From contig NZ_CP122539.1 in assembly GCF_029853675.1 (NCBI RefSeq), positions 2,189,001-2,253,000 of the forward strand: DNA of 64,000 nt, in the 5' to 3' direction. Origin of the DNA: Tenacibaculum tangerinum (GTDB taxonomy: Bacteria > Bacteroidota > Bacteroidia > Flavobacteriales > Flavobacteriaceae). The notes under the pieces are model-generated. The model was not told the origin of the DNA. It worked only from the letters and a program-made list of their open reading frames with translations, and did not search any database. Positions 9,044 through 23,390 of this stretch are shown piece by piece; the first letter of the stretch is position 1, and each line of letters opens with the position of its first letter. The position numbers and the translations under genes were made by a program.

Positions 9044-11635
9044 TTAATAAATAAATTCGAAATACTCTGAAGTACCTTTATATCCCCAACCACCAGAAAT
9101 ATCAAATTCATAGAGTCTTACTCTCCAATAGTAAGTTCTTCCTGGGGTTAAATTATTAGTATGTGTTACATTAAAAAAGGCATTATTACTACTATCTAAT
9201 TCTCCAGAGCTTTCAAACAAAATATCTGTAAATGTATTGTCCGAAGCTAACTGTAAATCATATTTATATGGGCTATTATATAAATTAGTATATTCAACAG
9301 TAAAAGTATTACTAGAATACGACCATGTTAAAACATGAGGAGGTTCAACATTAATACTTGAACTTTCAGAAGTAATAATATTGTCCGATGTGTCTACTAA
9401 AGATATTTTATAATAATTTGTTATGGTATAGTCTAATATATTGGTTGTCCTATACTCTGGAAAAGAAGTTGCAGTATCTACAGCAACATCTTGCTCAGCC
9501 TCTTCTACTAAATTCGTTAACCCTACATCACTAAAAAATTGAATTTTATATTTAAAACTAGCTGGGGCATTTCCTTCATGTGACCATTTTACTGTTGGTT
9601 TTAAAGAGGTATTATTTTCAGTTAAAATAATTTTAACTTCAGTAACACTAAACAAATGGAAATAATTACTCCATTCAGATGTTATTCCTTCTTGAGAAAT
9701 ATGCCTTACTCTAACATGATAGGAACCATAACCATCATTTACAGCATTCCAAACATTATATTCTTCTTGTAAATCTAAATTATCTAGGTCTTTAATTATA
9801 GTATTAAAGCTCGTGTTATCTGAAATTTGAATTTGAAGCTTTACTCCATCTGCTTCATAGTTAGAGTTATGTGATTTATCATAATCTAATACAAATCCGT
9901 ATAATACAGAGTCATTATATTTTGTTTCTAAGAACACTGGAACATTTAATTTATATTGAAATGAAGCACTAAACCATTCTCCTTCAACTCCTTCTTCATT
10001 AAAAATTTTTACTCTCCAATAATATATAGTATTATTAGTTACATTAAATATTGGAGTAATTGAAAAATCAGTATAATTTTCTTGGGTAAATAAAATTGTA
10101 TTAAAAGATGAATCAATTGCCACCTCAATATAATATTTCACATTTTTCATAACCTTAGGAGCTTCCCATTCCAACGTAGGAATCTTTACTACCTCTTCTC
10201 CGTTAGATGGAAAAGCTAAGCTTACATCTTCTAATTTAAAAAGATATGAACCCTCAACCCAATTACCAACTACATTATTAACATCTACAGGACGAACTCT
10301 CCAATAATAAGTGGTATTATTTAAGTAGTTTATTGAAGGTGTAATTGTTGCATGAGTATGACCACTTTTTTCAAAAAGTATATTATTAAAGCCTGAATTA
10401 TCTGACACTTGCACTTCATACTCAACATGATTTGAGGTCGAAGGAGTCGTCCACTCTAATTGAGGAGATTTAATTACTACTTCTCCGACAATAGGAGCAA
10501 CTACATTTATATTTTCTAAATTAATGTTAAAAGTTGCTATATTCCATTCACTTTGTTGATTGTTTTCATCTAAATACCTAACTCGCCAATAATACTTTGT
10601 ATCGTCTAACAATACTACAGAGGAAACAATCTTTGTAGTAGTTAAGTCATTTACATCCATTAACAAATTTGAAAAATCTTCTTTGTTAGATAACTGAAAA
10701 TGATATTTTGTGCCATCAACTTCACTAGCAGTCCATATAAACTCAGGTTTAGTCTCTATAATCTCTTCTTTAGGACTGATTACCATCACATCATAAGCAT
10801 TTAATGAACCATCTCCATCAGAATCTATAAACCTTTCGAAAGGAGGTAGTGAATAATCTATTTTTAACTCATCAAATCTTTTTGTAATATTCTTTGCTAC
10901 CTCCTCTAAGTTTAAATTTACACTATTCGTTTTTATTTCATCAATTAAAGATTCATTATCTAACGTGCCATCAGTTTCTAAATCTTGAGCTAATTTCGAC
11001 ACAAATTCTCCTAATTTTGCAACTGAGTTATCTCCTTGAATAATTACTGAAATAGCTAAAAGTATCGCATTTCCATCTCCTGCTTGGCTAATATCTAACT
11101 TATTAAAATCTATATCTTTGTGAAAAGGCTCTGGTATATTTAAAGCTAACAAAACTTCTTTTTCTCCTTGTTCCTTAGCTTCTGAAAATGATTTATCTTC
11201 ATTAATCATTAAGTATTTTATACGTTGACGAGCCAAAGTAGAAAGTATATTTATATTTATTTTTTCATCATTGTCTAAAACAACAAAAGTTCGAAGGGTT
11301 AATTGGGCTTCTGATAACTTTCCTGTAACTTCATTAAAATAAAATCCAGTTGCTGAAATATCTATTTTATCGCTTTGTACCTCAGCGTTTACGTCAAAAG
11401 ACCCGAAATCATCTATTGTTTCTGTATTATAAACGTAACCACTAAGTGTTAAATCATCATTCAACTCTTGCAATGAAATTGTTGACCCTTGAATATATGG
11501 CCCTTTTTGAATTAAGCTTTTATTTAGTTTAATAGAAACATTAGGTGGTGATGGATTCGTAGGAACTGGAGAATCGTGATTTGAACATGATACAAGAAAT
11601 ACTAAAAAAGCTAAAAGATATAAGTAGTTTTTCAT
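9044..11635 (-). CDS. Large surface lipoprotein with six fibronectin III-like repeats
   Basis: Exported lipoprotein of about 863 residues. I start it at the ATG at 11633-11635, because the in-frame TTG at 11651-11653 lies inside a promoter -7 box. The start gives a clean lipoprotein signal (LAFLVFLVSC, Cys17). A 250-residue N-terminal domain follows, then a short acidic calcium-type stretch (DSDGDGSLNAYDVM). Six repeats of about 95 residues come after, recognised by YYWRVR-type strands (YYWRVRYLD, YYWRVRPVD, YYWRVKIFN, TYYWRVRLYE). Such repeats usually mediate surface adhesion or polymer contact. No catalytic motif is seen. It is probably co-transcribed with the MOSC gene. I do not recognise the N-terminal domain. 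Confidence 0.75.
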   Translation of the reverse strand: MKNYLYLLAFLVFLVSCSNHDSPVPTNPSPPNVSIKLNKSLIQKGPYIQGSTISLQELNDDLTLSGYVYNTETIDDFGSFDVNAEVQSDKIDISATGFYFNEVTGKLSEAQLTLRTFVVLDNDEKININILSTLARQRIKYLMINEDKSFSEAKEQGEKEVLLALNIPEPFHKDIDFNKLDISQAGDGNAILLAISVIIQGDNSVAKLGEFVSKLAQDLETDGTLDNESLIDEIKTNSVNLNLEEVAKNITKRFDELKIDYSLPPFERFIDSDGDGSLNAYDVMVISPKEEIIETKPEFIWTASEVDGTKYHFQLSNKEDFSNLLMDVNDLTTTKIVSSVVLLDDTKYYWRVRYLDENNQQSEWNIATFNINLENINVVAPIVGEVVIKSPQLEWTTPSTSNHVEYEVQVSDNSGFNNILFEKSGHTHATITPSINYLNNTTYYWRVRPVDVNNVVGNWVEGSYLFKLEDVSLAFPSNGEEVVKIPTLEWEAPKVMKNVKYYIEVAIDSSFNTILFTQENYTDFSITPIFNVTNNTIYYWRVKIFNEEGVEGEWFSASFQYKLNVPVFLETKYNDSVLYGFVLDYDKSHNSNYEADGVKLQIQISDNTSFNTIIKDLDNLDLQEEYNVWNAVNDGYGSYHVRVRHISQEGITSEWSNYFHLFSVTEVKIILTENNTSLKPTVKWSHEGNAPASFKYKIQFFSDVGLTNLVEEAEQDVAVDTATSFPEYRTTNILDYTITNYYKISLVDTSDNIITSESSSINVEPPHVLTWSYSSNTFTVEYTNLYNSPYKYDLQLASDNTFTDILFESSGELDSSNNAFFNVTHTNNLTPGRTYYWRVRLYEFDISGGWGYKGTSEYFEFIY

Positions 11636-11650
11636 TAGTTGTTTTTCTCG

Positions 11651-11658
11651 CAAAGATA
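11651..11658 (-). promoter_or_regulatory. -7 box TATCTTTG for the fibronectin-like lipoprotein gene
   Basis: CAAAGATA on top reads TATCTTTG on the minus strand, 15 bases before the ATG at 11635. Its first bases coincide with the in-frame TTG that would otherwise extend the protein, so it decides the start. A CAA at 11673-11675 is slightly too close for a standard -33 box. Confidence 0.5.
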
Positions 11659-11997
11659 ATTATTTTATAAAACAATTTCTTCTAAATGAATATTTTAATA
11701 ATTATTAGCTACTTTGAATTCTTTAAAACTAATTCAAACTATTTTTTTATAAACATAACTCACGTTAATTAGTAACATAGAGCAATGAGAAAATGGTATT
11801 GAAAAAAATAAACATCAAAAAAATGCAGCCGTTCCACAATTACCTTCATGATATGTTTCTCCTGTTATATACTATATTAAAATGGCTTCAATTATGGAAA
11901 TAAGAGTAGGTAAAACTTCTATAATTATCAACAATAAATAACTTACTAATAATTGTTTTATATTTTTTTGGAAACCTAAACAATTTTCATTTAATTA
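11654..11997. other. AT-rich 340-base intergenic stretch without a recognisable gene
   Basis: Between GH3 and the fibronectin-like lipoprotein. It holds the lipoprotein promoter at its left end. I find no tRNA, no strong terminator and no long ORF. A short minus-strand reading frame ending in GETYHEGNCGTAAFF is closed by a stop a few codons upstream and is left unannotated. Confidence 0.5.
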
Positions 11998-13494
11998 TTA
12001 CTTAATCAAAAAACCTTGCAATACCTCCGCTATTTTTCGATTGTCTGATAGTTGCGGAATTTTATTTTGTCCTCCAAACTTACCGATGGATTTCATATAC
12101 TCATGGAAGCCTCCTTTTTTTACTTTTCTGATGATGAGTGGGCGCAAAATTTTTCCTTCAATTAAATCGAAGTAATATATGTTTTGCGTTTGCATAGAGG
12201 CATCAATTTTAGTCGCAAGTTCTTCTGTATTTTCAGGTTCGTTTTCAAACTCAATAAACCACTCGTGATACGGCAATCCGCTTTCTGGATTTACTTGTGG
12301 CGCTACAGTAAACTCACTCACACGAATATCTGTTCCTTTAATAGCATCATTCAATGCTTTTTCAACTTCTTTCCCGATTACATGCTCTCCAAAAGCAGAA
12401 ATAAAGTGCTTGATGCGTCCTGTTACTTTTATTCTATAAGGTTGTAAAGAGGTAAACTCTACCGTATCGCCTATATTATAGCCCCATAAACCTGCGGAAG
12501 TATTTAAAATAATTACATAGTTTACACCTAACTGAACATCTTTTAAGGAGATTCGTGTAGGATTATCTTCAAAAAACTCGTTGGCTGGAATGAATTCATA
12601 AAACATTCCTGAGTTTAATTGCAGCAACATTCCTTTTTCGGTTTGTGAGTCTTGATAGGCTATGAATCCTTCAGATGCTGGATACAACTCTACGTAGTCT
12701 ATTTTTTTTCCTATCAATGCTTCAAACTTGTTTTTGTAGGGCTCGAAGTTTACGCCTCCGTAAACAAAAAAGTTGAAGTTAGGAAAGAGTTCAGAAACGG
12801 TTTTTCCTGTTTTTTCTATGAGTCGTTCAAAATACATTTGTACCCAAGACGGTATTCCACTAATTACCGTCATATTTTCTGGTAAGGTTTCTTCAACTAT
12901 CTTATCTACTTTCGTATCCCAATCTTCAATACAATTGGTTTCCCAGCTAGGCAAACGATTTTTTAATAGGTAATTTGGAACATAGTGGGCGGCAATACCG
13001 CTTAAACGTCCTAATTTCATGCCGTTTTTATCTTCTAAAACAGGACTTCCTTGTAAAAAAATCATCTTTCCATCAACAAAGCTGGCATCGTTGGTTTCGG
13101 TAATATAAAACAACAATGCATTGCGGGCTGCTTTGATATGTGTTGGCATCGATTCTTTACTGATAGGGATGTATTTTGCTCCTGAGGTGGTTCCTGAGGT
13201 TTTGGCAAAATACAAGGGTTTTCCTTTCCACAACACATTTTCTTCTCCTGCTACCACTCTATCAATATACGGGCGCAACCCTTCGTAATCGTTTATTGGA
13301 ACTCGATTTTTAAAGTCTTCGTAATTATTAATCGATATAAAATCGTGTTCTTTTCCAAACACTGTTTTACATCCTTCAGCAACCAAATATTGAAATACTT
13401 TTTCTTGAGTTTTGTGTGGGTTGTTTGCCCATTTGTATACTTGTTTACGAACAATTTTCGCAAATGGAATGGCTAGTATTGATTTTACACTCAT
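11998..13494 (-). CDS. GH3 family acyl-adenylate/acyl-amide synthetase-like protein
   Basis: ANL-superfamily enzyme of 498 residues, full length for bacterial GH3 proteins. GH3 enzymes activate a carboxylic acid with ATP and join it to an amino acid; the bacterial substrate is unknown. Visible blocks include the ATP-binding P-loop-like FAKTSGTTSGAKYIPIS (about 107-123), the YPASEGFIAYQ adenylate region, and the GYNIGDTVEF plus KVTGRIKHFISAFGEHV hinge region. It starts 15 bases after the stop of the M23 peptidase gene and is likely in its operon. Confidence 0.88.
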   Translation of the reverse strand: MSVKSILAIPFAKIVRKQVYKWANNPHKTQEKVFQYLVAEGCKTVFGKEHDFISINNYEDFKNRVPINDYEGLRPYIDRVVAGEENVLWKGKPLYFAKTSGTTSGAKYIPISKESMPTHIKAARNALLFYITETNDASFVDGKMIFLQGSPVLEDKNGMKLGRLSGIAAHYVPNYLLKNRLPSWETNCIEDWDTKVDKIVEETLPENMTVISGIPSWVQMYFERLIEKTGKTVSELFPNFNFFVYGGVNFEPYKNKFEALIGKKIDYVELYPASEGFIAYQDSQTEKGMLLQLNSGMFYEFIPANEFFEDNPTRISLKDVQLGVNYVIILNTSAGLWGYNIGDTVEFTSLQPYRIKVTGRIKHFISAFGEHVIGKEVEKALNDAIKGTDIRVSEFTVAPQVNPESGLPYHEWFIEFENEPENTEELATKIDASMQTQNIYYFDLIEGKILRPLIIRKVKKGGFHEYMKSIGKFGGQNKIPQLSDNRKIAEVLQGFLIK

Positions 13495-13509: not shown

Positions 13510-14373
13510 TTACTGAAAATCTATATAGTTTGTTGGGTTTACTGGAAATCCGTTATTCCACAGCTCAAAGTGTAAATGTGGCCCGGTAGTTAATTCTCCT
13601 GTAGAGCCTACACTTGCTATTGCTTCTCCTGATTTTACAACATCTCCTTGTTGTTTTAGTAGCGTACCATTGTGCTTATAAACTGATAAGAATTTGTTAG
13701 GGTGTTGTATCATTATTACATATCCTGTTTCTGCTGTCCATTCGGCTAAAATTACGGTTCCGTCTGCGACTGTTTTTACTGGTGTTCCTGTTTTTGCCAC
13801 AATATCAATCGCATAATGTTTATCGTCTGCATCAAATGGTTGAGAAATGGTTCCTGTTAATGGTGAAAAAAACACGTTTTTAATGTTATTTTTTCCTCCT
13901 TCATATAAGGGGAAAAGGTCTTTGCTCTCAATTTTTTCTCTGAATAATGAATCTTCTTTTGATGCTTGTAACTTTTGTTCATCAAAAGCAATGGTTTTCA
14001 TTTCACTGGTAATAGAGTCGATTTTTTCTGGTTCTATCTCTCCTGTTAAAACGGGTTTTAACGCTTTTGTATAGTTTTCGATAATAGCTAAACGATTTTT
14101 TAAAGAGTCTGATTCGTAGGTAAGTCGTGTTGCTTTCTTTTTTAATGCTGTTGAAGAATATCCTGGTATGTATTCTCGAATTCCTGTAAATGCTATGAGC
14201 AATGTAGTAAGCACAATGAGAAGTATCGAAAACACTCCACCAAATACAAAAACATTGAGTCGTGATAACTTTAAAGAAAACCGCTCTTGAAAGGTATCTT
14301 CATTTATAATTACCAAGCGATATTTATCGGTAAGTTTTTGTTTGAGCTTTCGCCTTTTGTTATTGTTTGCCAC
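13510..14373 (-). CDS. M23 family metallopeptidase, membrane-anchored
   Basis: Cell-wall endopeptidase-like protein of 287 residues. A basic N terminus (NNNKRRKLKQKL) precedes one membrane span at about 41-63. A helical region at 75-165 follows, then the LytM/M23 beta domain at 170-285. The zinc site is represented by HYAIDI (His and Asp) and GPHLHFELW (His-x-His), so all expected ligands are present. It acts in the periplasm on peptidoglycan cross-links or as a regulator of another hydrolase. The gene leads into GH3 and has a TATATTTG box 22 bases upstream. Confidence 0.9.
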   Translation of the reverse strand: MANNNKRRKLKQKLTDKYRLVIINEDTFQERFSLKLSRLNVFVFGGVFSILLIVLTTLLIAFTGIREYIPGYSSTALKKKATRLTYESDSLKNRLAIIENYTKALKPVLTGEIEPEKIDSITSEMKTIAFDEQKLQASKEDSLFREKIESKDLFPLYEGGKNNIKNVFFSPLTGTISQPFDADDKHYAIDIVAKTGTPVKTVADGTVILAEWTAETGYVIMIQHPNKFLSVYKHNGTLLKQQGDVVKSGEAIASVGSTGELTTGPHLHFELWNNGFPVNPTNYIDFQ

Positions 14374-14394
14374 GTTTTATACTTGTTTGGGTTT

Positions 14395-14402
14395 CAAATA
14401 TA
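14395..14402 (-). promoter_or_regulatory. -7 box TATATTTG for the M23 peptidase gene
   Basis: CAAATATA on top reads TATATTTG on the minus strand, 22 bases before the ATG at 14373, and fits TAnnTTTG. The -33 element is not clear. Confidence 0.45.
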
Positions 14403-14460
14403 CAACGAAAAAGTTTCAATTCTTTTCTTAAGAAAAGCTTAAAAGTTCACTTACAAAACA

Positions 14461-14504
14461 TAACAATAAAAAAAACCAGCTAATTACTGGCTTTTTTATT
14501 GTTA
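14461..14504. terminator. Terminator after the small lipoprotein gene
   Basis: Inverted repeat with a CCAG/CTGG core and long flanking pairs (TAACAATAAAAAA and TTTTTTATTGTTA) just past the 3' end of the minus-strand gene at 14522. Confidence 0.75.
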
Positions 14505-14521
14505 TGAATTCTTCTGTATAT

Positions 14522-15364
14522 TTAGTATCTATCTTTTAGTATTATTTCTTTAGTGTTGCCAGCAGCATCGGTTATTGTTGCGTTGCTATCACAAGAACCA
14601 TCTCCAAAATCAATCGTATAACTACGCTCTCCTCTAGTTACTTCAACTACTCCGCTTACTATGTATTTGCAGGCATATTCTCTTCTTAAATCGGTAGTTA
14701 TCGTTACGTTCACTTCTTTGCCTGCTTTGTTTACTGATTTCCAAAAACCTGAGATTAAAAACACATCATCTCCTCTATCGTGTGTATCATAACCTTCAAT
14801 CATTTCTTTAATTTTCTCTCCTTTTTTAGTAATCGTTTCTCCTGTTTTTAACGTTATTGAAAGATCTATTGAATAGGTTCTTTCTGGGTGTCCGTCTATA
14901 TTCTCTCTCACCTTAGATACTACGATGGTACCTACTACAGCGTTTCCATCTACTGAAAAATTTTCAAAGGTAACTGTTTTTAAAAATCCTCCTTCTACTC
15001 TGGTATATTCAATACTAATTTTACCAGCAAAAACATGTCCTTTCTTTCCAGTACAAGCAGTACCAAAATCTAACGTCACTTTTTTACTTCCTGCTGTTTC
15101 TTCAATAGTTCTAGTTAAACATTCAGGGTGGTTGTTTTTTGCGACAGTTCCTTTTACAGAAAGCTCCTCTAGTACAACATCGTCTTCAATAACACTTTCA
15201 ATGCCTGATGAAATATCATTTTCTAATACAGCTTCTAATGCTTCTTCAGTTGTCAATTCAGAGTTAGATACTTTTTCTGTTTCATCAGATTGACAAGATG
15301 TTACTACCAAAAAACTTAGAAGTGAAAGAATATAGATGCTTTCTTTTACAAATTTTAAAGTCAT
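14522..15364 (-). CDS. Hypothetical lipoprotein
   Basis: Exported lipoprotein of 280 residues with a signal peptide ending in the lipobox VVTSC at about residue 24. An acidic region follows (DETEKVSNSELTTEEALEAV), then a beta-rich domain with paired cysteines (HPECL, GTACTGKKGH, REYACKYI, GDGSC). I do not recognise the family, although it resembles other flavobacterial secreted lipoproteins. Its start lies 66 bases from the stop of a truncated nadD copy, with the same flanking sequence that follows intact nadD at 22.8 kb. This suggests that it once sat directly downstream of nadD. A terminator follows it. Confidence 0.7.
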   Translation of the reverse strand: MTLKFVKESIYILSLLSFLVVTSCQSDETEKVSNSELTTEEALEAVLENDISSGIESVIEDDVVLEELSVKGTVAKNNHPECLTRTIEETAGSKKVTLDFGTACTGKKGHVFAGKISIEYTRVEGGFLKTVTFENFSVDGNAVVGTIVVSKVRENIDGHPERTYSIDLSITLKTGETITKKGEKIKEMIEGYDTHDRGDDVFLISGFWKSVNKAGKEVNVTITTDLRREYACKYIVSGVVEVTRGERSYTIDFGDGSCDSNATITDAAGNTKEIILKDRY

Positions 15365-15371
15365 GATTTTT

Positions 15372-15652
15372 AATTTTAAAGTTAATCAATTACTTTGACC
15401 TTAAAATTTTAAAAAAGTTTAATTGCTTTTTTATTTTTTGTAAAAATTCATCTCATCAATATACTTCCAAACTTGATAAGACAATAATGGTTTGCAGTTT
15501 TTTTCTTCTTTAATTGCCTTGCGAATCATCGTTGAAGATATTTGTATGATAGGCGCCGCCACTTTGTGAATTTTTTGATGGTTTTTAAACTGATTTTCTA
15601 CAGTTCCTTCTGAAATCCTGGGATATACGTAAATATTGTAATCTTCTAAAAT
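15372..15652. repeat. Left copy of a 281-bp direct repeat (nadD tail and downstream flank)
   Basis: Aligns without gaps to 22747-23027 with eight differences that I can count, all transitions (about 97% identity). It includes the last 74 codons of nadD plus 59 bases beyond the stop. The left copy stops abruptly at TCTAAAAT, where it joins an IS-derived sequence. Confidence 0.95.
15431..15652 (-). pseudogene. nadD C-terminal fragment
   Basis: Encodes the last 74 residues of the NadD found at 22806-23390, including the ISSTMIRKAI block and the final EMNFYKK, with the same stop codon. The catalytic N-terminal half (GTFNPIHIGH) is absent, there is no start codon, and the 5' end fuses to an IS1595-like terminus at 15648. 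It is non-functional, and its value is as a scar of the rearrangement that placed the 15.7-22.7 kb insert here. Confidence 0.93.
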
Positions 15653-15748
15653 TCGCTATGAAACTGAAAATAGTCATCTGTTGATTCTTACTAGATGATA
15701 CTACTTTCTTGTAAAGTATGACGTATTATGGGGATTCAATAAATTTTA
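15648..15748 (-). mobile_element. Terminal 101-bp fragment of an IS1595-like element
   Basis: Aligns without gaps to 22653-22753, the leader and first codons of the IS1595-type transposase remnant, with 19 differences that I count (about 81% identity). Both copies end in ATTCAATAAATTTTA. The fragment joins the truncated nadD through a shared AAAAT and ends on the stop codon of the AraC gene. Confidence 0.8.
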
Positions 15749-16912
15749 ATCAGTTTTTAACTTTTCCATTTTCTTTATGAAATCAGAAGGATTAACACCT
15801 TTTAATTTGAAGAACGCTTTAGAAAAAGAATCAGCACTTTTGTAACCAGCCTCTAAAGCAATAGCTTTAATTGTAAACTTTCTAATAATTGAATTTGTTT
15901 CTAATTGTTCTGTTATATTATTTATTCTCAAATTATTAATGTAATTATTAAAAGACAATTCTTTATAGTGATTAATTACTTTTGACAAATAAGCTGTATT
16001 GGTATTTAATTGATTAGCTAAGTTATTTAAAGTAACATTTTGAGAAGAGTACTGTTTCTCTTTTTCAAATTTTTCTAGGCTTCGTAAAATATTGTCCACA
16101 ACATCATTAGGAATATTGATTACTTTTTTATCAATATTATTTTGATTATAAGATGTGGTTTTTTGATTAACATATAAAGCATTATATTTTCGTAAATATT
16201 CTCTTTCTTTTAATATTTTTAGTTGTAGAATTGATTGATAACCTAACCAATATATGAGAATAGTTGTAAAAACTCTTAAAGGGTAATAAGAAGGCATAAA
16301 TACCTCAAATCCTAAATAAAGAGTTATAAGTAAAGGTACAAACCAAAACACATAAGACAATAGACCTAATCTGAAAAATATACGAATCCAATTCAAATTA
16401 TCATACGTGGTAATATTTGATAATGTATTTGATTCTTTATATATCTTATAAGAATAAATAAAAATAGTTAGTGAAAATACACTACTAATAATTTCCTCAA
16501 TAACGACATACTTTCTAAAAAAATATATAACATCACTATTAATTTTTTCGCTATAAATATAAAATCCAAATCGTATTACTAAAAAAGCACAAAAAGTAAA
16601 TAAAATGATTTTCAAAATATTAAAACTCTTTTTTGCTACATTTAAATATTGATTAAGAAACAAGTAAAAAAAAGGAGCAATCCAAAAATGCCAAGGAACT
16701 TGAAAATACTGTATAAAAACATTACCTCTAAAAAAATCTTTAACCACCACCCAAGATTGGAAATTATTTAATGATATAGCTAAAGCTAACAAATTAATAA
16801 AAATTAATACTTTATTCCTACCTCCTCTTGAAAAGTACAAGGCAAAACAAAAAACAAAGCCATGTATTGCACTAATTAGCAAGAATAAATTAAAAAAATC
16901 TTCTACACTCAA
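15746..16912 (-). CDS. AraC family regulator with a multi-span membrane N terminus
   Basis: Membrane-anchored transcription factor of 388 residues. The first 235 residues contain about seven hydrophobic segments (FFNLFLLISAIHGFVFCFAL, WIAPFFYLFLNQYL, FWFVPLLITLYLGF, LIYWLGYQSILQL). Residues about 285-385 are the AraC DNA-binding domain with two helix-turn-helix units (VTLNNLANQLNTNTAYLSKV, then AIALEAGYKSADSFSKAFFK) and the closing GVNPSDFIKK. This layout is common in Bacteroidota, where the membrane part may sense a signal. It is the first gene inside the nadD-bracketed insert and is transcribed away from the small membrane protein gene at 17146. The palindrome at 17038-17059 between them is a likely control site. 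Confidence 0.9.
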   Translation of the reverse strand: MSVEDFFNLFLLISAIHGFVFCFALYFSRGGRNKVLIFINLLALAISLNNFQSWVVVKDFFRGNVFIQYFQVPWHFWIAPFFYLFLNQYLNVAKKSFNILKIILFTFCAFLVIRFGFYIYSEKINSDVIYFFRKYVVIEEIISSVFSLTIFIYSYKIYKESNTLSNITTYDNLNWIRIFFRLGLLSYVFWFVPLLITLYLGFEVFMPSYYPLRVFTTILIYWLGYQSILQLKILKEREYLRKYNALYVNQKTTSYNQNNIDKKVINIPNDVVDNILRSLEKFEKEKQYSSQNVTLNNLANQLNTNTAYLSKVINHYKELSFNNYINNLRINNITEQLETNSIIRKFTIKAIALEAGYKSADSFSKAFFKLKGVNPSDFIKKMEKLKTD

Positions 16913-17037
16913 TTTTTAAAGGTCATTTTTAATACTAAAAAAAGTAAAAGTAGCTATTTTATATTACTAATATGAATAAAAGCAACAACATTATAAATGT
17001 CAGCGCTTTATTTAATCTAATAAGTTTTTAATATACA

Positions 17038-17059
17038 CTTGATATTTATAAATATCAAG
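17038..17059. promoter_or_regulatory. Perfect 22-bp palindrome, candidate operator
   Basis: CTTGATATTTA is followed immediately by its exact reverse complement. It lies in the 233-base divergent spacer between the AraC regulator and the gene at 17146. A direct repeat of TTTATAAATAkCAA...CAGTAATT overlaps it (17045-17067 and 17066-17091). Direct repeats suit AraC-type binding, whereas the palindrome suits a dimer. Confidence 0.6.
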
Positions 17060-17145
17060 CAGTAATTTATAAATAGCAAAATACAGTAATTGTACAGCAC
17101 CTTTTTCTTTAGTTATTTAGCAATAAATAATTTATTCTCATTACA

Positions 17146-17547
17146 ATGAAAACGGTAATAACATGTATTTTACTCTTATTTAGTTATTCTATTAACTCTC
17201 AAAGTTTATCTAAAAGGCAAATTTATAAACTAAATGCTTTAAATGTAAAAACTAATGAACTTAATTTAAATAATCTCAATATTCAAAAAGATTTAAATGA
17301 AATATTAATTCTTGAAAAAAAACGAAAAACAAACAAAACAGTAGCAATAGTATTAAGTTCAATTGCTGTTAGCGGAATATTGCTAGGTGGTGCTTTATAC
17401 AGCCAAGATGATGGATTATCAGAAGTTTTTGGAGCTACATTTATGGTTGGTGGAGCTGTTTATGGTGGAATTTCTATACCTTTTTGGACTTCTTCTAAAA
17501 AAAGGAAAAAAGAAAGAGATAAATTATTACAATTGTTTAATGATTAA
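17146..17547 (+). CDS. Small exported or membrane protein of unknown function
   Basis: Protein of 133 residues. Residues 1-18 look like a signal peptide (TCILLLFSYSINSQ). Residues 20-60 are a charged, possibly coiled-coil stretch (KLNALNVKTNELNLNNLNIQ). Residues about 64-115 form two hydrophobic segments rich in glycine (VAIVLSSIAVSGILLGGAL, FMVGGAVYGGISIPF). The C terminus is strongly basic (SSKKRKKERDKLL). I do not recognise the family. It is divergent from the AraC regulator and 39 bases ahead of the lipoprotein triplet, so it may be co-regulated with both. Confidence 0.65.
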   Translation: MKTVITCILLLFSYSINSQSLSKRQIYKLNALNVKTNELNLNNLNIQKDLNEILILEKKRKTNKTVAIVLSSIAVSGILLGGALYSQDDGLSEVFGATFMVGGAVYGGISIPFWTSSKKRKKERDKLLQLFND

Positions 17548-17586
17548 TTTTATCTAAAAAATAAAATAACTTAAAAACCCAAAAAC

Positions 17587-18186
17587 ATGAAAATAAAAAT
17601 TTTGAAAACAGTTTTATTATTTGCAGTAATTCTATTTTTTAATTGCTCAAATAATGATGATTCCATTGAACAAGACCAATTACCTCCGATAACACAAACT
17701 GGAGCTAACACTTTTGGGTGTGTTGTTAACGGTAAAGTACTTATTCCAAAAGATGCATTACCAAGTTTAGGCGGACCACAAAGTTCTGCAAGAAGAGGAT
17801 TGAGTGTTAATTATCACTCAAATAATAATTTTGTCATTTATGCTGGTAATTTTAGAGGAGAAAATAAACCAAATATTTATATATATATAAATAATCTAAC
17901 TTCCACAGGAACATATTCATTTGGATTAAGTAATGGTGAAAGTATTTCAACTTTTGAACCTACCTATCCTCACTGTTGGATTAAACCTTTTAGCATAGCA
18001 GTAAATGGACAAAAATACCTAAGCAATACAAATTCTGGGATAGTGACTATTACTAAATTTGACTCTGTAAATAACATAATTTCAGGTACATTTCAATTAA
18101 CTGCTTTTGATGAAAATAACCCCAGAGAAACTATAGAAGTAACTAATGGTAGATTCGATTTTAATTTAAATACAGTAAATAATTAA
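17587..18186 (+). CDS. Lipoprotein, DUF6252-like, copy 1 of 3
   Basis: Lipoprotein of 199 residues with its signal cut at FFNCSNN (Cys20). After a short acidic linker comes the near-invariant segment PPITQTGANTFGCVVNGKV (about 32-50), which I associate with the DUF6252 family; that assignment is from memory. The central region (NVYI-type strands, TSTGTYSFGLSNGES) is predicted to be beta-rich. The first 150 bases and the last 40 are almost identical to copy 2, while the middle differs. Function is unknown. The protein is anchored in the periplasm or on the outer membrane. Confidence 0.8.
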   Translation: MKIKILKTVLLFAVILFFNCSNNDDSIEQDQLPPITQTGANTFGCVVNGKVLIPKDALPSLGGPQSSARRGLSVNYHSNNNFVIYAGNFRGENKPNIYIYINNLTSTGTYSFGLSNGESISTFEPTYPHCWIKPFSIAVNGQKYLSNTNSGIVTITKFDSVNNIISGTFQLTAFDENNPRETIEVTNGRFDFNLNTVNN

Positions 18187-18199
18187 AAACCGAAACCAT

Positions 18200-18784
18200 A
18201 TGAAAATAAAAATTTTAAAAACAGTTTTATTATTTGCAGTAATTATATTTTTTAATTGCTCAAATAATGATGATTCTATTGAACAAGACCAATTACCTCC
18301 GATAACACAAACTGGAGCTAACACTTTTGGGTGTGTTATAAATGGAGAGGTTTTAGTACCTAAAGATGCTATAAATTACCCCCCAGGTCCTATACCAAGA
18401 GGTTTAAAAGTATACTATCAAAATAACATCTTGACTATAGATGCTGGAAATTTAGCAGATGATAATGGTAATCGTGTATACATATATATAAATGGTATTA
18501 ATAGTACTGGAAGCTTTGAACTTAACAATGCTGAATATACAGCAAATAACTTCACTCCAAACTATTCTTATTTATGGGTTCGTGAAAATAATAATGATAT
18601 AGATAAAATATACTTATCAAAAACTACAACTGGAAGTATTAATATCAGTCGATTTGATTCAGTAAATAACATAGTGTCTGGTAATTTTGATAACCTAAAC
18701 ATAGTAAACAAAGACAATACTAATGAATCAATTACTTTAACTAATGGTAGATTCGATTTTAATTTAAATACAGTAAATAATTAA
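18200..18784 (+). CDS. Lipoprotein, DUF6252-like, copy 2 of 3
   Basis: Paralogue of 194 residues directly after copy 1 (13-base spacer AAAACCGAAACCAT plus start). The first 46 residues match copy 1 except for one or two positions, and the last 13 residues (GRFDFNLNTVNN) are identical. The core is clearly different: an insertion/deletion at residues 57-65, and INSTGSFELNNAEYTANNF replacing TSTGTYSFGLSNGES. Identity at both edges with a divergent core points to repeated gene conversion or unequal crossing-over. Function is unknown. Confidence 0.8.
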   Translation: MKIKILKTVLLFAVIIFFNCSNNDDSIEQDQLPPITQTGANTFGCVINGEVLVPKDAINYPPGPIPRGLKVYYQNNILTIDAGNLADDNGNRVYIYINGINSTGSFELNNAEYTANNFTPNYSYLWVRENNNDIDKIYLSKTTTGSINISRFDSVNNIVSGNFDNLNIVNKDNTNESITLTNGRFDFNLNTVNN

Positions 18785-18797
18785 AAACCGAAACCAT

Positions 18798-19373
18798 ATG
18801 AAAACAAACATTTTAAAAACAGTTTTATTATTTGCAGTAATTATATTTTTTAATTGCTCAAATAATGATGATTCCATTGAACAAGACCAATTACCTCCGA
18901 TAACACAAACTGGAGCTAATACTTTTGGGTGTGTTGTTAACGGTAAAGTAATTATTCCAAAAGATGGTATAGGTGTACCTCAACCAAAAGGAATTAATGT
19001 TTACTATTTTCAGAATAATAATTTTGTAATAGATGCAGCTAATTTAAAAGATAGTAATAGAGATCGTATTTACTTATATGTAAACAACTTAACATCTACA
19101 GGGACTTATTCTTTTGGAGTGAGTAATGGTCAAGGCACTTCTACTTTCGAACCTGACTTCCCTCATTGCTGGGTAAGAACTTTTGATAATGCAAATGGTA
19201 GTAAAAGATATTTTTCCAATTTAAATTCTGGATCTATTACTGTTACATATTTTGATGCTAATAACCATATAGTAGCGGGAACATTTCAATTAACTGTTGC
19301 TAATGAAAATGATACTAATGACGTTATCGAAATAACAGAAGGACGTTTCGATGTAAATTGGATTGAATTATAA
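18798..19373 (+). CDS. Lipoprotein, DUF6252-like, copy 3 of 3
   Basis: Paralogue of 191 residues with the same 13-base spacer and lipoprotein signal (Cys20). Its core (TSTGTYSFGVSNGQGTSTF, PHCWVRTF) is closer to copy 1 than to copy 2. Its C terminus (GRFDVNWIEL) differs from the other two. A hairpin follows at 19379-19401, and the esterase-like gene starts 80 bases on. Function is unknown; as lipoproteins next to a secreted esterase-like protein they could be accessory or protective partners, but nothing in the sequence proves it. Confidence 0.8.
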   Translation: MKTNILKTVLLFAVIIFFNCSNNDDSIEQDQLPPITQTGANTFGCVVNGKVIIPKDGIGVPQPKGINVYYFQNNNFVIDAANLKDSNRDRIYLYVNNLTSTGTYSFGVSNGQGTSTFEPDFPHCWVRTFDNANGSKRYFSNLNSGSITVTYFDANNHIVAGTFQLTVANENDTNDVIEITEGRFDVNWIEL

Positions 19374-19378
19374 AAAAA

Positions 19379-19401
19379 GACAGTTGCCTCTAACAACCGT
19401 C
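19379..19401 (+). terminator. Hairpin after the lipoprotein triplet
   Basis: GACAGTTG and CAACCGTC pair with one mismatch around a 7-base loop. There is no long T run, so it may weaken rather than stop read-through into the next gene. Confidence 0.4.
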
Positions 19402-19452
19402 TATAATATTAAACTCTAAAACACTTTATTAAAATTTAACACATACAAAGTT

Positions 19453-22251
19453 ATGAAAAAAAACATACTTTTTTTATTTATATTTTTAATTTCGTTGATA
19501 GCACAAGCGCAATTAACCAATGGAAATTTCACAACAGAAATAGACGAAAGGTTTAAAAATCTTAACAAAACTACTATTACATCAAATATATTAATAGATA
19601 GAGTTTTTTCAATGGCTGAAATCCAAACCTTTAACCAAAATTTAAGAAAAGACACTTCTAATGTATCTCATTTTAAACAAGCTTGGAGTGAATTATATAG
19701 AGCGTCTTATACTAAAAATTTCCCATCAGTTGACATATTTAAAAATCAACTGAAGGCTAAGAAATATACTTCTAATGTTGTACCAATCGGAATAATAAAT
19801 ACAGCGTTTCATGAATGTAATTTTGGCACAACAGAACAAAACGCTACAGTAAGTTATAATTCTAGTACTGGGTTGTTTAGTAATATTGCAGGTAAAATTC
19901 CTTTTATAAAAAAACAGACCACTATTATAGCTCCACTGGTGACTAAAGCATCAGGGCACTCTATTACATTTACTACTGATAATTTGTTTAAATTATACAA
20001 ACAGGGAAAACCTATAAAAAATTTAATTTTATACACAAATAACTCTTCGTTTTCATTGATAAGCAACTATAATTTAAGAACTACAAATTTTTCAACAACG
20101 TATCAAAACACTGGTTTACAGACACTTCGTTTTGTGGTTACATATAGTGATAATACATCAAAAACGACTTATGGCACTGTAAATATAATAAAACCTGTTA
20201 CTTACGCTCAGAGAGACAGTTCTTCTAATTTATTAACTATTGATTCAGATGACGATTTACTGTTCCAAGGATATGATGAAAATCAAGTATACAGAGGTCT
20301 AAATGAGTATCGAATTTATTATGATACACAAAATAATGATGAAGTAGTTAATAAACCTTTATATATTATTGATGGTTATGACCCTAATGATTCTAGAAAA
20401 ATCGATGCACAAGATTATATTAACTTTAATCCTAATGAAGATAAAAGCATTATAGATTTAATGAAGTATGGAAACAATATCAATTTGATAGATTCTTTAA
20501 ATCATAAAGGTTTTGATGTAATAATTGTAAATCACCCAGTATACAATAGAGGTAATAAAACTATTGATGGAGGTAGTGATTATATTGAGCGTAATGCTTA
20601 TACTTTTATAAGTTTAATACGTCATATAAAAAGTATTCAACAAGGTAATGAGAAGGCTGTAGTTATTGGTCCAAGTATGGGCGGATTAATTTCTCGCTAT
20701 GCATTAGCTTTTATGGAAAAGAAATTAGCTGAAACTGGAGATAATACAAAATGGAATCATAACACTCGCTTATGGGTAAGTTTTGACAGTCCACACCAAG
20801 GGGCTAATATACCTATTGGTGTACAAAAAGGCATACAATATTTTGCAGAAGTACTAGACAACGAAGGAGCTAAAGAGTTTATAAATGAAGAGCTAAACAA
20901 ACCTGCTCCTAAACAAATGCTTGTAAACCACTATACGAATAATACTAGTTTACCTGTTGGAGCTCCAAATTTTAGAAACCGCTTTCAAAATGCTTTAGAT
21001 AACATAGGAATGCCACAAAATTTAAGGAAAGTAGCCTTACTTAATGGAAGTATATATGGGCAACTAAATGGAGTTTCATCAGGCAATTATCTGGATATCG
21101 ACACTAAAATACCGATACTATTTGGACTATTTCACTTTAATTTATTACACTCAGATTTCTACCATAGTACAAATATTAAAAGTGGAAGCCAAAAGTTTCT
21201 TACTTTTAGTAATGATGGTTTCTATATAAGTTTTCTTTTTTGGAAAATTACAATAATAAAGGGAAGACACACATACTCATCTCCTTCTTCAAAAGGCAGT
21301 TATGATATTGCACCTGGTGGACACTTTGGAGCCCATAAAATTTTAGCAAAAGAATCAAATAGTGATTCCTATTGGTCTGCTTGGGGTATCAGGTGGGTAC
21401 ATACGTTAACCACAAGGTCAACTATATTTGACCCAACACATAGTTTCATTCCGACTAAAAGTGCATTAGCTTATACAGGTAGTTCTACATTAGATGAATA
21501 TCTTGCAGATAAAAATAGAGTTTGTACTGGTGAAACTCCTTTTGATGGCTATTTCGCTCCTCAAAATAATGAAGAGCATATTTTTCTTACTAATGAAAAC
21601 GTAAACTGGTTAACTGAAGAAATTATGGGCAACCCTCAAAATCCACCAGTTTACATAAGACCTTTTACAATTCAAGGAGAAAATACGATATGCTATTCTG
21701 AATATAAAACATTTACCATAGACGCTATATCTTCATGTCAAAGTACAACCCAATGGTCGGTAAGTAATAATTTAATTATTTCTTCTCAAACTAACAAGAG
21801 TATAACGGTCACTCCTATAGATAGTTCTACAAATGGCTTAGGCTGGATATCAGCTAAAAGAGAAGGTGGAAATACTGTTATTGATGATAAAGGAATATGG
21901 GTAGGAAAACCTTTAGAGCAATTCGCCTCTTTTAGATTAGTGGGAAATACCCAAATTTTTTCGCAACAATGGTCTAGATTAGAAGCTTCTGGGCAGTTTT
22001 TAATTCCTGAATATGAAAAAGATTTATATACATTTGATTATGATTGGAGTATACCTAATAGTGAAATAAGATACGCTGAAAATAAACGAATAGCTAATAT
22101 AAAGCCATACTATACTGGAAATATTAATATTGGGTTACGATTAAAAAACATATGTGGATGCTCTAATTGGTATACTAGACAGTTTAACGTAGTCTATGAA
22201 GGAGGCGGCACAGGTGGAGGAGGTAATGTTTTAACTCCAGTTTTTGAATAA
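19453..22251 (+). CDS. Large secreted alpha/beta-hydrolase (esterase or lipase-like)
   Basis: Secreted protein of 932 residues with a Sec signal peptide (LFLFIFLISLIAQAQ, cut about residue 19). Residues about 290-480 are an alpha/beta-hydrolase domain: PLYIIDGYDPND, VIIVNHPVYNRG, then the nucleophile elbow GPSMGG around residue 410 (G-x-S-x-G) and SFDSPHQGANIP, all typical of lipase/PGAP1-like folds. A late His in GGHFGAHK around residue 624 could complete the triad. Residues 730-920 are Ig/PKD-like beta domains (ISCQSTTQWSVS). The end GGGTGGGGNVLTPVFE resembles the linker before a type IX secretion signal, but no sorting domain follows. A good terminator lies 21 bases downstream. The substrate is unknown. 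Confidence 0.75.
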   Translation: MKKNILFLFIFLISLIAQAQLTNGNFTTEIDERFKNLNKTTITSNILIDRVFSMAEIQTFNQNLRKDTSNVSHFKQAWSELYRASYTKNFPSVDIFKNQLKAKKYTSNVVPIGIINTAFHECNFGTTEQNATVSYNSSTGLFSNIAGKIPFIKKQTTIIAPLVTKASGHSITFTTDNLFKLYKQGKPIKNLILYTNNSSFSLISNYNLRTTNFSTTYQNTGLQTLRFVVTYSDNTSKTTYGTVNIIKPVTYAQRDSSSNLLTIDSDDDLLFQGYDENQVYRGLNEYRIYYDTQNNDEVVNKPLYIIDGYDPNDSRKIDAQDYINFNPNEDKSIIDLMKYGNNINLIDSLNHKGFDVIIVNHPVYNRGNKTIDGGSDYIERNAYTFISLIRHIKSIQQGNEKAVVIGPSMGGLISRYALAFMEKKLAETGDNTKWNHNTRLWVSFDSPHQGANIPIGVQKGIQYFAEVLDNEGAKEFINEELNKPAPKQMLVNHYTNNTSLPVGAPNFRNRFQNALDNIGMPQNLRKVALLNGSIYGQLNGVSSGNYLDIDTKIPILFGLFHFNLLHSDFYHSTNIKSGSQKFLTFSNDGFYISFLFWKITIIKGRHTYSSPSSKGSYDIAPGGHFGAHKILAKESNSDSYWSAWGIRWVHTLTTRSTIFDPTHSFIPTKSALAYTGSSTLDEYLADKNRVCTGETPFDGYFAPQNNEEHIFLTNENVNWLTEEIMGNPQNPPVYIRPFTIQGENTICYSEYKTFTIDAISSCQSTTQWSVSNNLIISSQTNKSITVTPIDSSTNGLGWISAKREGGNTVIDDKGIWVGKPLEQFASFRLVGNTQIFSQQWSRLEASGQFLIPEYEKDLYTFDYDWSIPNSEIRYAENKRIANIKPYYTGNINIGLRLKNICGCSNWYTRQFNVVYEGGGTGGGGNVLTPVFE

Positions 22252-22272
22252 GAATATTATTTTGAATAGTTT

Positions 22273-22311
22273 AAAAGCAGGTTTTCATTTTAAAACTTGC
22301 TTTTATTTTTT
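22273..22311 (+). terminator. Terminator of the esterase-like gene
   Basis: AAAAGCAGGTTTT and AAAACTTGCTTTT form a 13-bp stem with one G-T pair around CATTTT, followed by an AT-rich T run. Confidence 0.8.
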
Positions 22312-22337
22312 ATGTCCGAAAACTGGCAACATGGACA

Positions 22338-22682
22338 TCTCTGTAACTTATCAACCATTTCCCATACAGGCTCATATCATTTTAAAACTAATTGCTTTTG
22401 AATCTCTTTAGAAGAAAACCCTTTTTTTTGGTAGCTGTGAGTAAAAATATGGTCTTATACCAAACAAAAAAAAGGAAGGTTAGAGTCTTGCATAATTGCA
22501 CCTCTCTTTAAGTTTATACGCTTTCGACATTTCTTACTCTCGTATCTTAACCTGCTTTTAATCAAATAATGCTCTGTATGACCACATTTACATACAACTC
22601 CTTGCTTATCTCTTTCTGATTTAAAATCAGCTATAAAAGCTTGTTCATCTTCAAAATTCGCTGTGAAACACAAAATAATCAT
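22338..22682 (-). pseudogene. IS1595-family transposase remnant (N-terminal half)
   Basis: Reading leftwards from the ATG at 22682, the peptide FEDEQAFIADFKSERDKQG followed by CKCGHTEHYLIKSR and MQDSNLPF is the zinc-ribbon N terminus of IS1595/ISXO2-type transposases. The frame breaks after about 75 codons, but the alternate frames continue recognisably as WYKTIFLLTATKKKGFSSKE and, past an internal TGA, YEPVWEMVDKLQR. The DDE catalytic domain is missing. Copy-end sequence at 22683-22753 matches 15678-15748. It marks the right edge of the insert. Confidence 0.85.
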
Positions 22683-22746
22683 CTGTTAATTTTTACTACA
22701 TTATAATACTTTTTTATAAAATATTATGTATCACAGATATTCAATA

Positions 22747-23027
22747 AATTTTAAAGTTAATCAATTACTTTGACCTTAAAATTTTAAAAAAGTTTAATTG
22801 CTTTTTTATTTTTTGTAAAAATTCATCTCATCAATATATTTCCAAACTTGATAAGACAATAATGGTTTGCAGTTTTTTTCTTCTTTAATTGCTTTGCGAA
22901 TCATTGTTGAAGATATTTGTATGATAGGCGCCACCACTTTATGAATTTTTTGATGGTTTTTAAACTGATTTTCTGCAGTTCCTTCTGAAATTCTGGGGTA
23001 TACGTAAATATTGTAATCTTCTAAAAT
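22747..23027. repeat. Right copy of the 281-bp direct repeat (inside intact nadD)
   Basis: Partner of 15372-15652, offset by exactly 7375 bases. It covers the 3' part of nadD and 59 bases beyond its stop. It joins IS1595-like sequence at AAATTTTA. Confidence 0.95.
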
Positions 23028-23390
23028 AGCCTCGTAATTTTTCCACTTGTGCAAACTCTTCAAATTATCTTCTCCCATGATTAGACTAAAGTTATAGTCT
23101 GGATATTTTTCTGAAATATGAGCTAAAGTATTGATGGTATAATTAGGTTGTGGTAGTTTAAATTCGATATCTGAAGGCCTAATTTTTTCATATTCTTGGG
23201 TCGCCAAATACACCATTTCTAAGCGATGGTGATTATCTAATAACGAGCTTTTCTTTTTAAAGGGGTTGTGTGGGGTTACCACCATCCAGATTTCATCTAA
23301 ATCTGAGTTTTCAACCAAATGGTTGGCAATAATTAAATGCCCAATATGAATTGGATTAAATGTTCCGAAGTATAATCCGATATTTTTCAT
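22806..23390 (-). CDS. nadD: Nicotinate-nucleotide adenylyltransferase
   Basis: Makes deamido-NAD from nicotinate mononucleotide and ATP in the cytoplasm. The protein has 194 residues, the family length. The nucleotidyltransferase signature GTFNPIHIGH with His15 and His18 opens the protein, and the C-terminal ISSTMIRKAI block completes the ATP site. It is the third gene of a yicC-gmk-nadD operon (16 bases after gmk). Its last 74 codons are duplicated at 15.4 kb, and its downstream neighbour has been displaced by the 7-kb insert. Confidence 0.97.
   Translation of the reverse strand: MKNIGLYFGTFNPIHIGHLIIANHLVENSDLDEIWMVVTPHNPFKKKSSLLDNHHRLEMVYLATQEYEKIRPSDIEFKLPQPNYTINTLAHISEKYPDYNFSLIMGEDNLKSLHKWKNYEAILEDYNIYVYPRISEGTAENQFKNHQKIHKVVAPIIQISSTMIRKAIKEEKNCKPLLSYQVWKYIDEMNFYKK

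What the first reader, a model, noticed from the sequence alone, without database searches (positions are those of the whole stretch)
15372..23027. A 7.4-kb insert bracketed by a duplicated nadD tail and IS1595 remnants
The last 74 codons of nadD plus 59 flanking bases occur twice in direct orientation (15372-15652 and 22747-23027, eight differences in 281). Next to each copy lies part of an IS1595-like element (15648-15748 and 22338-22753), but these two are only about 81% identical over the shared 101 bases. Between them sit the AraC regulator, a small membrane protein, three paralogous lipoproteins and a large esterase-like protein. The lipoprotein gene at 14522 still has nadD's downstream flank before it, so nadD and that gene were once neighbours. 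Junctions show short shared sequence (AAAAT; AAATTTTA). The unequal divergence of the two repeat types argues against one simple tandem duplication and suggests integration at pre-existing IS copies or recombination with related DNA.
Basis: partly seen in the sequence, partly recalled or inferred. Interest (0 to 1): 0.8.

Follow-up and report, generated by a model that had tools for sequence, protein, structure and literature searches.

The report
Inserted lipase module with gene-tail scar
A foreign-looking block with a predicted secreted lipase and three lipoproteins that may guard against it sits next to the gene nadD, framed by a copied piece of nadD's end; similar blocks framed by copied ends of other core genes were found in two other bacteria, which hints at a shared way of entering chromosomes.

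Summary
In detail: the last 74 codons of nadD plus 59 bp occur twice (281 bp, 8 differences) around a 28%-GC block with an AraC regulator, a small protein, three paralogous lipoproteins and a large alpha/beta-hydrolase, with IS1595 relics at both edges. Relatives show nadD-lip14522 (11 genomes) or nadD-M23 (the five closest). None of the 21 other esterase-bearing genomes of the genus set shows the esterase beside nadD.

The block is a recurrent module: 22 of 26 esterase loci read have lipoprotein genes just upstream. Lipoprotein arrays without esterase, and esterase stubs inside arrays, resemble effector-immunity loci; that function is inferred.

Core-gene-tail repeats also bracket such modules at trpS (G012) and at a symporter gene (G206, draft contigs), in the order intact gene, module, orphan tail. 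The trpS tails are identical over 138 bp and about 20% different on either side. No recombinase was found among the insert's scanned ORFs apart from the IS relic. Best explanation: donor DNA carrying a core-gene 3' end entered by homologous recombination in that tail, with an end-join at microhomology. The IS relics look like passengers. Scars are the minority: most module loci have none, and enrichment over controls is only suggestive.

The parts
14522..15364 (-). lip14522, lipoprotein gene, ancestral downstream neighbour of nadD
   Evidence: next to nadD in 11 distinct genomes
15372..15430 (-). leader between lip14522 and nadD, copy 1 (59 bp)
15431..15652 (-). orphan nadD 3' end, 74 codons with stop; no start, not translated in the nadD frame from the fused IS start
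15648..15652 (.). left junction, microhomology AAAAT between nadD and the IS relic
15648..15749 (-). IS1595 relic, 5' end only (inferred IS end at 15738)
15746..16912 (-). AraC-family regulator, 388 aa
   Evidence: PF12833 E 2e-13; relative near 13 of 26 esterase loci
17146..17547 (+). small protein, 133 aa, no Pfam match; 37% match in L187
   Evidence: (as L109)
17587..18186 (+). lipA, lipoprotein, Riean_0653 family (proposed immunity protein)
   Evidence: NF052634 155 bits, cut-off 57
18200..18784 (+). lipB, paralogue
   Evidence: NF052634 144 bits
18798..19373 (+). lipC, paralogue
   Evidence: NF052634 161 bits
19453..22251 (+). est, 932 aa, signal peptide (by eye), alpha/beta-hydrolase about residues 250-735; proposed secreted lipase effector
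   Evidence: PF00561; model and fold comparison
22338..22754 (-). IS1595 relic, 5' part with truncated zinc-ribbon ORF 22455-22682 (inferred IS end at 22743)
22747..22754 (.). right junction, AATTTTAA, between the sequence next to the IS relic and the nadD leader
22747..22805 (-). leader, copy 2
22806..23390 (-). intact nadD, 194 aa
   Evidence: PF01467

Best explanation
A lipase plus lipoprotein-array module came from a closely related donor on DNA that also carried the nadD 3' end. It entered by homologous recombination in that tail, while the other end was joined at microhomology (AAAAT): either a single crossover of a circularised donor fragment, or homology-facilitated illegitimate recombination (HFIR). 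Both give the order intact gene, module, orphan tail, old neighbour. The module most likely works as a secreted antibacterial lipase with a stack of immunity lipoproteins, controlled by the AraC regulator. Shown: the scar, the ancestral neighbours, the recurrence of the module, tail repeats around two homologous modules at other genes. Inferred: the donor, the crossover, secretion, toxicity and immunity.
For: Repeat ends coincide with the two insert junctions. Copy differences look allelic: 6 of 8 synonymous, P 0.017 under neutral transitions, a small post-hoc test. Insert GC 28.1% against 32.3 and 34.5% beside it. Homologous modules are bracketed by a trpS tail in G012 and by symporter tails in G206; trpS tails differ at 7 of 36, 0 of 138 and 17 of 84 positions in successive stretches, as conversion around a crossover would leave; 6 of 17 other same-genus genomes have trpS directly beside the gene now behind the orphan tail. 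Precedent: in E. coli 56 of 60 clones gave the PCR product of a target-end duplication, 14 sequenced ones of 109-950 bp, ascribed to single crossovers (PMC3240628, passages); HFIR proposed for effector-immunity arrays in Vibrio cholerae (PMC5361080, passages). ComEC homologue in the own genome (PF03772 E 4e-56). Function: 22 of 26 esterase loci have lipoproteins just upstream; lipoprotein arrays with no esterase in the fetched stretch (L199, L202) and esterase stubs in arrays (L180, L200, L211).
Against: No same-species genome was available, so neither donor nor recipient haplotype is seen. Tail scars were found at only 2 of 25 other esterase-bearing loci; repeats passing the size test at 3 of 25 against 1 of 69 controls, P 0.056, and 3 of 39 against 1 of 69, P 0.13, with all module loci. 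The G206 order rests on contig ends. A later allelic exchange of the intact nadD would give the same difference pattern. The 11 bases shared after both IS relics are unexplained. Riean_0653 is needed for full haemolysis in Riemerella (PMC7881567, passages), which allows a helper role. The window's est has no T9SS-tail match, so its export route is open.
Confidence: 0.55

Rival explanations
1. Two-ended illegitimate insertion: a fragment was patched in at two microhomologies (AAAAT and AATTTTAA) with staggered switch points, which copied 281 bp; the copies were identical at first and diverged later.
For: Both junctions show microhomology rarer than random joins.
Against: Differences are mostly synonymous although copy 1 is untranslated, and none lies in the 59 non-coding bases; the trpS pair of G012 shows recombination between diverged tails.
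Confidence: 0.2
2. IS1595-mediated arrival: the module was a composite transposon between two IS1595 copies, later scarred.
For: Relics of the same IS type in direct orientation at both edges, each followed by the same 11 AT-rich bases.
Against: The relics are only 81% alike, both truncated; the left one is cut inside nadD sequence and not at an IS end; no other IS1595 zinc-ribbon gene in the genome; no IS match in G012, which has a comparable scar.
Confidence: 0.1
3. Site-specific integrative element that uses gene 3' ends as attachment sites and carries replacement tails, its recombinase lost or acting in trans.
For: The order intact gene, insert, orphan tail is what such elements leave (recalled, from no call); inserts appear stacked in G206.
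Against: Three unrelated target genes; no recombinase among the scanned ORFs of the window's insert (two short overlapping ORFs not scanned).
Confidence: 0.12
4. On function: the lipoproteins are helpers of the lipase (chaperones or surface partners) and not immunity proteins.
For: Riean_0653 mutants of Riemerella have reduced haemolysis, restored by complementation, and the recombinant protein is not haemolytic (PMC7881567, passages).
Against: Up to eight diverged paralogues per lipase, arrays with no lipase in the fetched stretch, and lipase stubs of another allele class inside an array.
Confidence: 0.35

Closest known systems
Vibrio cholerae T6SS effector-immunity modules and orphan immunity arrays (PMC5361080, passages read)
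   Same: Arrays of immunity-like genes, leftover effector pieces, and HFIR as the proposed way in
   Different: Here Sec-type export signals, lipoproteins of the Riean_0653 family, no T6SS link tested, and the anchor is the tail of an unrelated core gene
Tle lipase effectors with Tli immunity proteins (PMC9860674: start of abstract in a listing; PMC6684961: passages)
   Same: Lipase-type effector; Tli3 is an outer-membrane lipoprotein; PldB is listed with three immunity genes, tli5b123
   Different: No sequence or fold kinship shown; est has an N-terminal signal and long beta-rich flanks
Duplications by single crossover of circularised DNA in E. coli (PMC3240628, passages)
   Same: Duplicated target end of 109-950 bp around inserted DNA
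   Different: A laboratory construct, not a natural module
Riean_0653 family, NCBIfam NF052634
   Same: lipA-C score 144-161 bits, cut-off 57
   Different: The family has no assigned biochemical function; its Riemerella namesake is linked to haemolysis only

Membership tests
Riean_0653 family (NF052634) | Score over the curated cut-off | tested here: met
   155, 144 and 161 bits, cut-off 57
Alpha/beta-hydrolase lipase/esterase (est) | Pfam score and fold | tested here: met
Alpha/beta-hydrolase lipase/esterase (est) | Nucleophile and catalytic acid and base | tested here: inconclusive
   S408 in GPSMG, D618 and H709 invariant in 42 sequences; geometry not measured
T9SS cargo | C-terminal sorting domain | tested here: not met
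   No match for the window's est; the own genome's second esterase has one (PF18962 E 8e-8)
Effector-immunity module | Toxic effector neutralised by cognate immunity protein | not testable with these tools
   Only gene order and arrays seen
HFIR or single-crossover integration | Homologous tail duplicated, other end joined at microhomology | tested here: met
   281-bp repeat ending at AAAAT
HFIR or single-crossover integration | Donor and recipient haplotypes found in other strains | not testable with these tools
   No same-species genome met; the best nadD DNA matches in the genus set are 82-85%
IS1595 composite transposon | Complete IS copies with inverted repeats at both ends | tested here: not met
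   Both relics truncated, 81% alike
Known anti-phage defence system | PADLOC model match | tested here: not met
   No match at E 0.1 for 7 proteins

The most novel reading that the evidence does not exclude
Integrase-free spread of effector-immunity modules among marine Flavobacteriaceae: modules move as DNA circles or fragments that carry the 3' end of the core gene they last sat beside, and enter the same gene of the next genome by a single crossover. This keeps the gene working, leaves an orphan tail as a scar, and lets inserts stack at one gene, as the symporter contigs of G206 suggest.
Probability: 0.3. Interest if true: 0.75.

Novelty: new variant of a known kind. Interest (0 to 1): 0.58.

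Why it matters
If right, orphan core-gene tails are a readable record of how weapon-like modules enter chromosomes without a recombinase of their own, and a search key for such islands. The lipase/lipoprotein arrays would be an undescribed effector-immunity class: I met no such description in the paper searches, which cover open-access papers only and were read as listings, apart from the passages cited.

Full report
What was checked. The window is G000:C1:2189001-2253000 of a 3.61-Mb single-contig genome. The 27 best of 80 named nadD matches are titled Tenacibaculum (records of the own or a very near genome may be left out there). The reported repeats, relics and genes are present. The 281-nt repeat has 8 differences. 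Neither the nadD tail nor the relics were found elsewhere in the genome.

What the site looked like before. In the five closest named relatives (L006-L010) nadD is followed by the M23 peptidase gene. In 11 distinct genomes it is followed by lip14522 (7 of 80 loci; 9 of 29, 5 of them the same contigs). In the six aligned, the leader matches both window copies; L030 has another spacer. So the chromosome was probably lip14522-leader-nadD, and copy 1 is its left part. The esterase is not near nadD in any of the 21 other genomes of the 166-genome genus set with an esterase match: it is on another contig, or at least about 99 kb away. For drafts, adjacency across contig ends is not excluded.

A recurrent module. 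An esterase match occurs in 22 of 166 genus genomes; I fetched wide stretches from 18 of these 22 (20 loci; G058, G082, G151 and G153 were left out), later also six esterase loci from other genera. Of these 26, window included, 22 have same-strand lipoprotein genes upstream, 21 within 400 bp, 15 have two or more, and 13 have an AraC relative in the stretch. L203 was fetched for its lipoprotein hit and L212, L216 and L217 for hits to both, so the association is slightly favoured by choice; without these four it is 18 of 22. In six loci (L175, L179, L181, L182, L184, L187) the module lies between the rsmE gene and the DUF4159/symporter gene pair, and in two (L185, L189) one side is seen; these genes were matched by their printed starts to the own genome's copies, which were typed by Pfam. 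The own genome has that site with an AraC gene only. Its second module lies beside a ComEC gene.

Signs of effector-immunity evolution. Lipoprotein arrays occur with no esterase match in the fetched stretch (L199 and L202, five genes each; L201, five, cut by a contig end); a diverged esterase could have been missed. In L180 three 91-residue esterase stubs alternate with lipoprotein genes: two are 90 and 93% identical to the resident esterase, the third is 87.6% identical to another protein, P0050. L200 and L211 also hold short stubs beside lipoproteins. Displaced effectors with kept immunity genes are described so in Vibrio cholerae (PMC5361080, passages). An exported or Sec-directed lipase with lipoprotein guards fits this, but nothing here tests toxicity.

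How it got in: the screen. I screened 40 module loci, window included, for direct repeats bracketing the est/lip genes. Four pass 200 bp and 85%: the window, L193, L212 and L188. Of 69 nadD loci of at least 15 kb without an est/lip hit, one has such a repeat anywhere at 2-12 kb spacing. Without the window this is 3 of 39 against 1 of 69, P 0.13, or 3 of 25 esterase-bearing loci, P 0.056; core-gene tails alone, 2 of 25, P 0.17. The enrichment is suggestive only; the argument rests on the anatomy of the cases.

Order: intact trpS (PF00579, E 5e-55), esterase, eight lipoproteins, orphan trpS tail, DUF1761 gene. In 6 of the 17 other same-genus genomes, trpS lies directly beside the DUF1761 gene; in 4 others it lies beside the following gene; in the other 7 neither was seen within the 1.5 kb held. 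The two tails differ at 7 of 36, 0 of 138 and 17 of 84 positions in successive stretches. An identical core between diverged edges is what conversion around a crossover leaves; decay of a duplicate would not.

The symporter case (G206, a draft of about 250 contigs). Contig 37 ends inside an open symporter gene (392 aa) in a 99-base sequence shared exactly with one end and the start of contig 15 and the start of contig 212. The simplest path is intact symporter, three lipoproteins, esterase, orphan tail of 152 codons, outer-membrane protein and subtilase, second orphan tail, a thiolase-like gene (recognised by eye): two stacked inserts. This rests on contig ends and is not proven. The second insert is not an est/lip module, so the mode of entry may be general.

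Mechanism. A single crossover of a circularised fragment, or HFIR, gives this order. In E. coli 56 of 60 clones gave the PCR product of a duplicated target end, 14 sequenced ones spanned 109-950 bp, and the authors ascribe them to single crossovers (PMC3240628, passages). The window's left join is at AAAAT inside a longer near-match. The synonymous bias (6 of 8, P 0.017, a small post-hoc test) suggests that both tails were in use while they diverged, so that they are two alleles. Against 27 relatives, copy 1 has the rarer state at two sites (CAC, AGG; both synonymous) and copy 2 at one (GCA, Ala for Val); the other five are ambiguous. I cannot tell single crossover from HFIR, nor exclude a later allelic exchange of the intact nadD. 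Gene tails may be favoured because only a 3'-end duplication leaves the gene working (inference).

Results against. Most module loci lack a scar. The 11 bases after both IS relics are shared and unexplained; AT-rich target choice may explain them, as other copies sit in AT-rich sequence. Riean_0653 mutants of Riemerella have reduced haemolysis, restored by complementation (PMC7881567, passages), which allows a helper role. The family-wide esterase search scored only the two best candidates per genome, so its misses mean little, and many of its hits cover only the C-terminal tail. 186 of 299 family genomes have a lipoprotein match at E 0.001, 44 over the cut-off.

Verdict. The finding is real and better explained by recombination with related DNA than by IS insertion. 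The parts are of known kinds; lipase/lipoprotein arrays combined with core-gene-tail scars at different genes are, as far as I could search, a new variant.

Noticed in passing
L212, L226, L227 (G206 contigs 15, 212, 37): Two inserts seem stacked behind one symporter gene, each followed by an orphan tail of that gene; the second carries an outer-membrane protein and a subtilase.
   Followed up: partly
L188:7961-8280 and 11428-11747: The esterase's own 3' end plus flank is repeated just upstream of the gene (320 bp, 87.5%), perhaps a tail taken from its neighbour.
   Followed up: no
L185:4598-4660, 10312-10373, 11897-11958, 12786-12847: A 63-bp element, 92-94% alike, lies near the starts of several lipoprotein genes and one other gene; a candidate binding site of the AraC regulator.
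   Followed up: no
L191 (G000:C1:3317500-3336500): The own genome has a second, distant esterase with five lipoprotein ORFs and a T9SS tail, beside a ComEC gene.
   Followed up: partly
window 14373-14522: Relatives have an ECF sigma factor cluster between lip14522 and the M23 gene; it is missing here.
   Followed up: partly
L180:8348-11281: Three esterase N-terminal stubs, two allele classes, all ending at the same codons, alternate with lipoprotein genes.
   Followed up: partly
L064:4060-4258 and 14420-14618: The one control locus with a 201-bp, 90.5% direct repeat about 10 kb apart.
   Followed up: no
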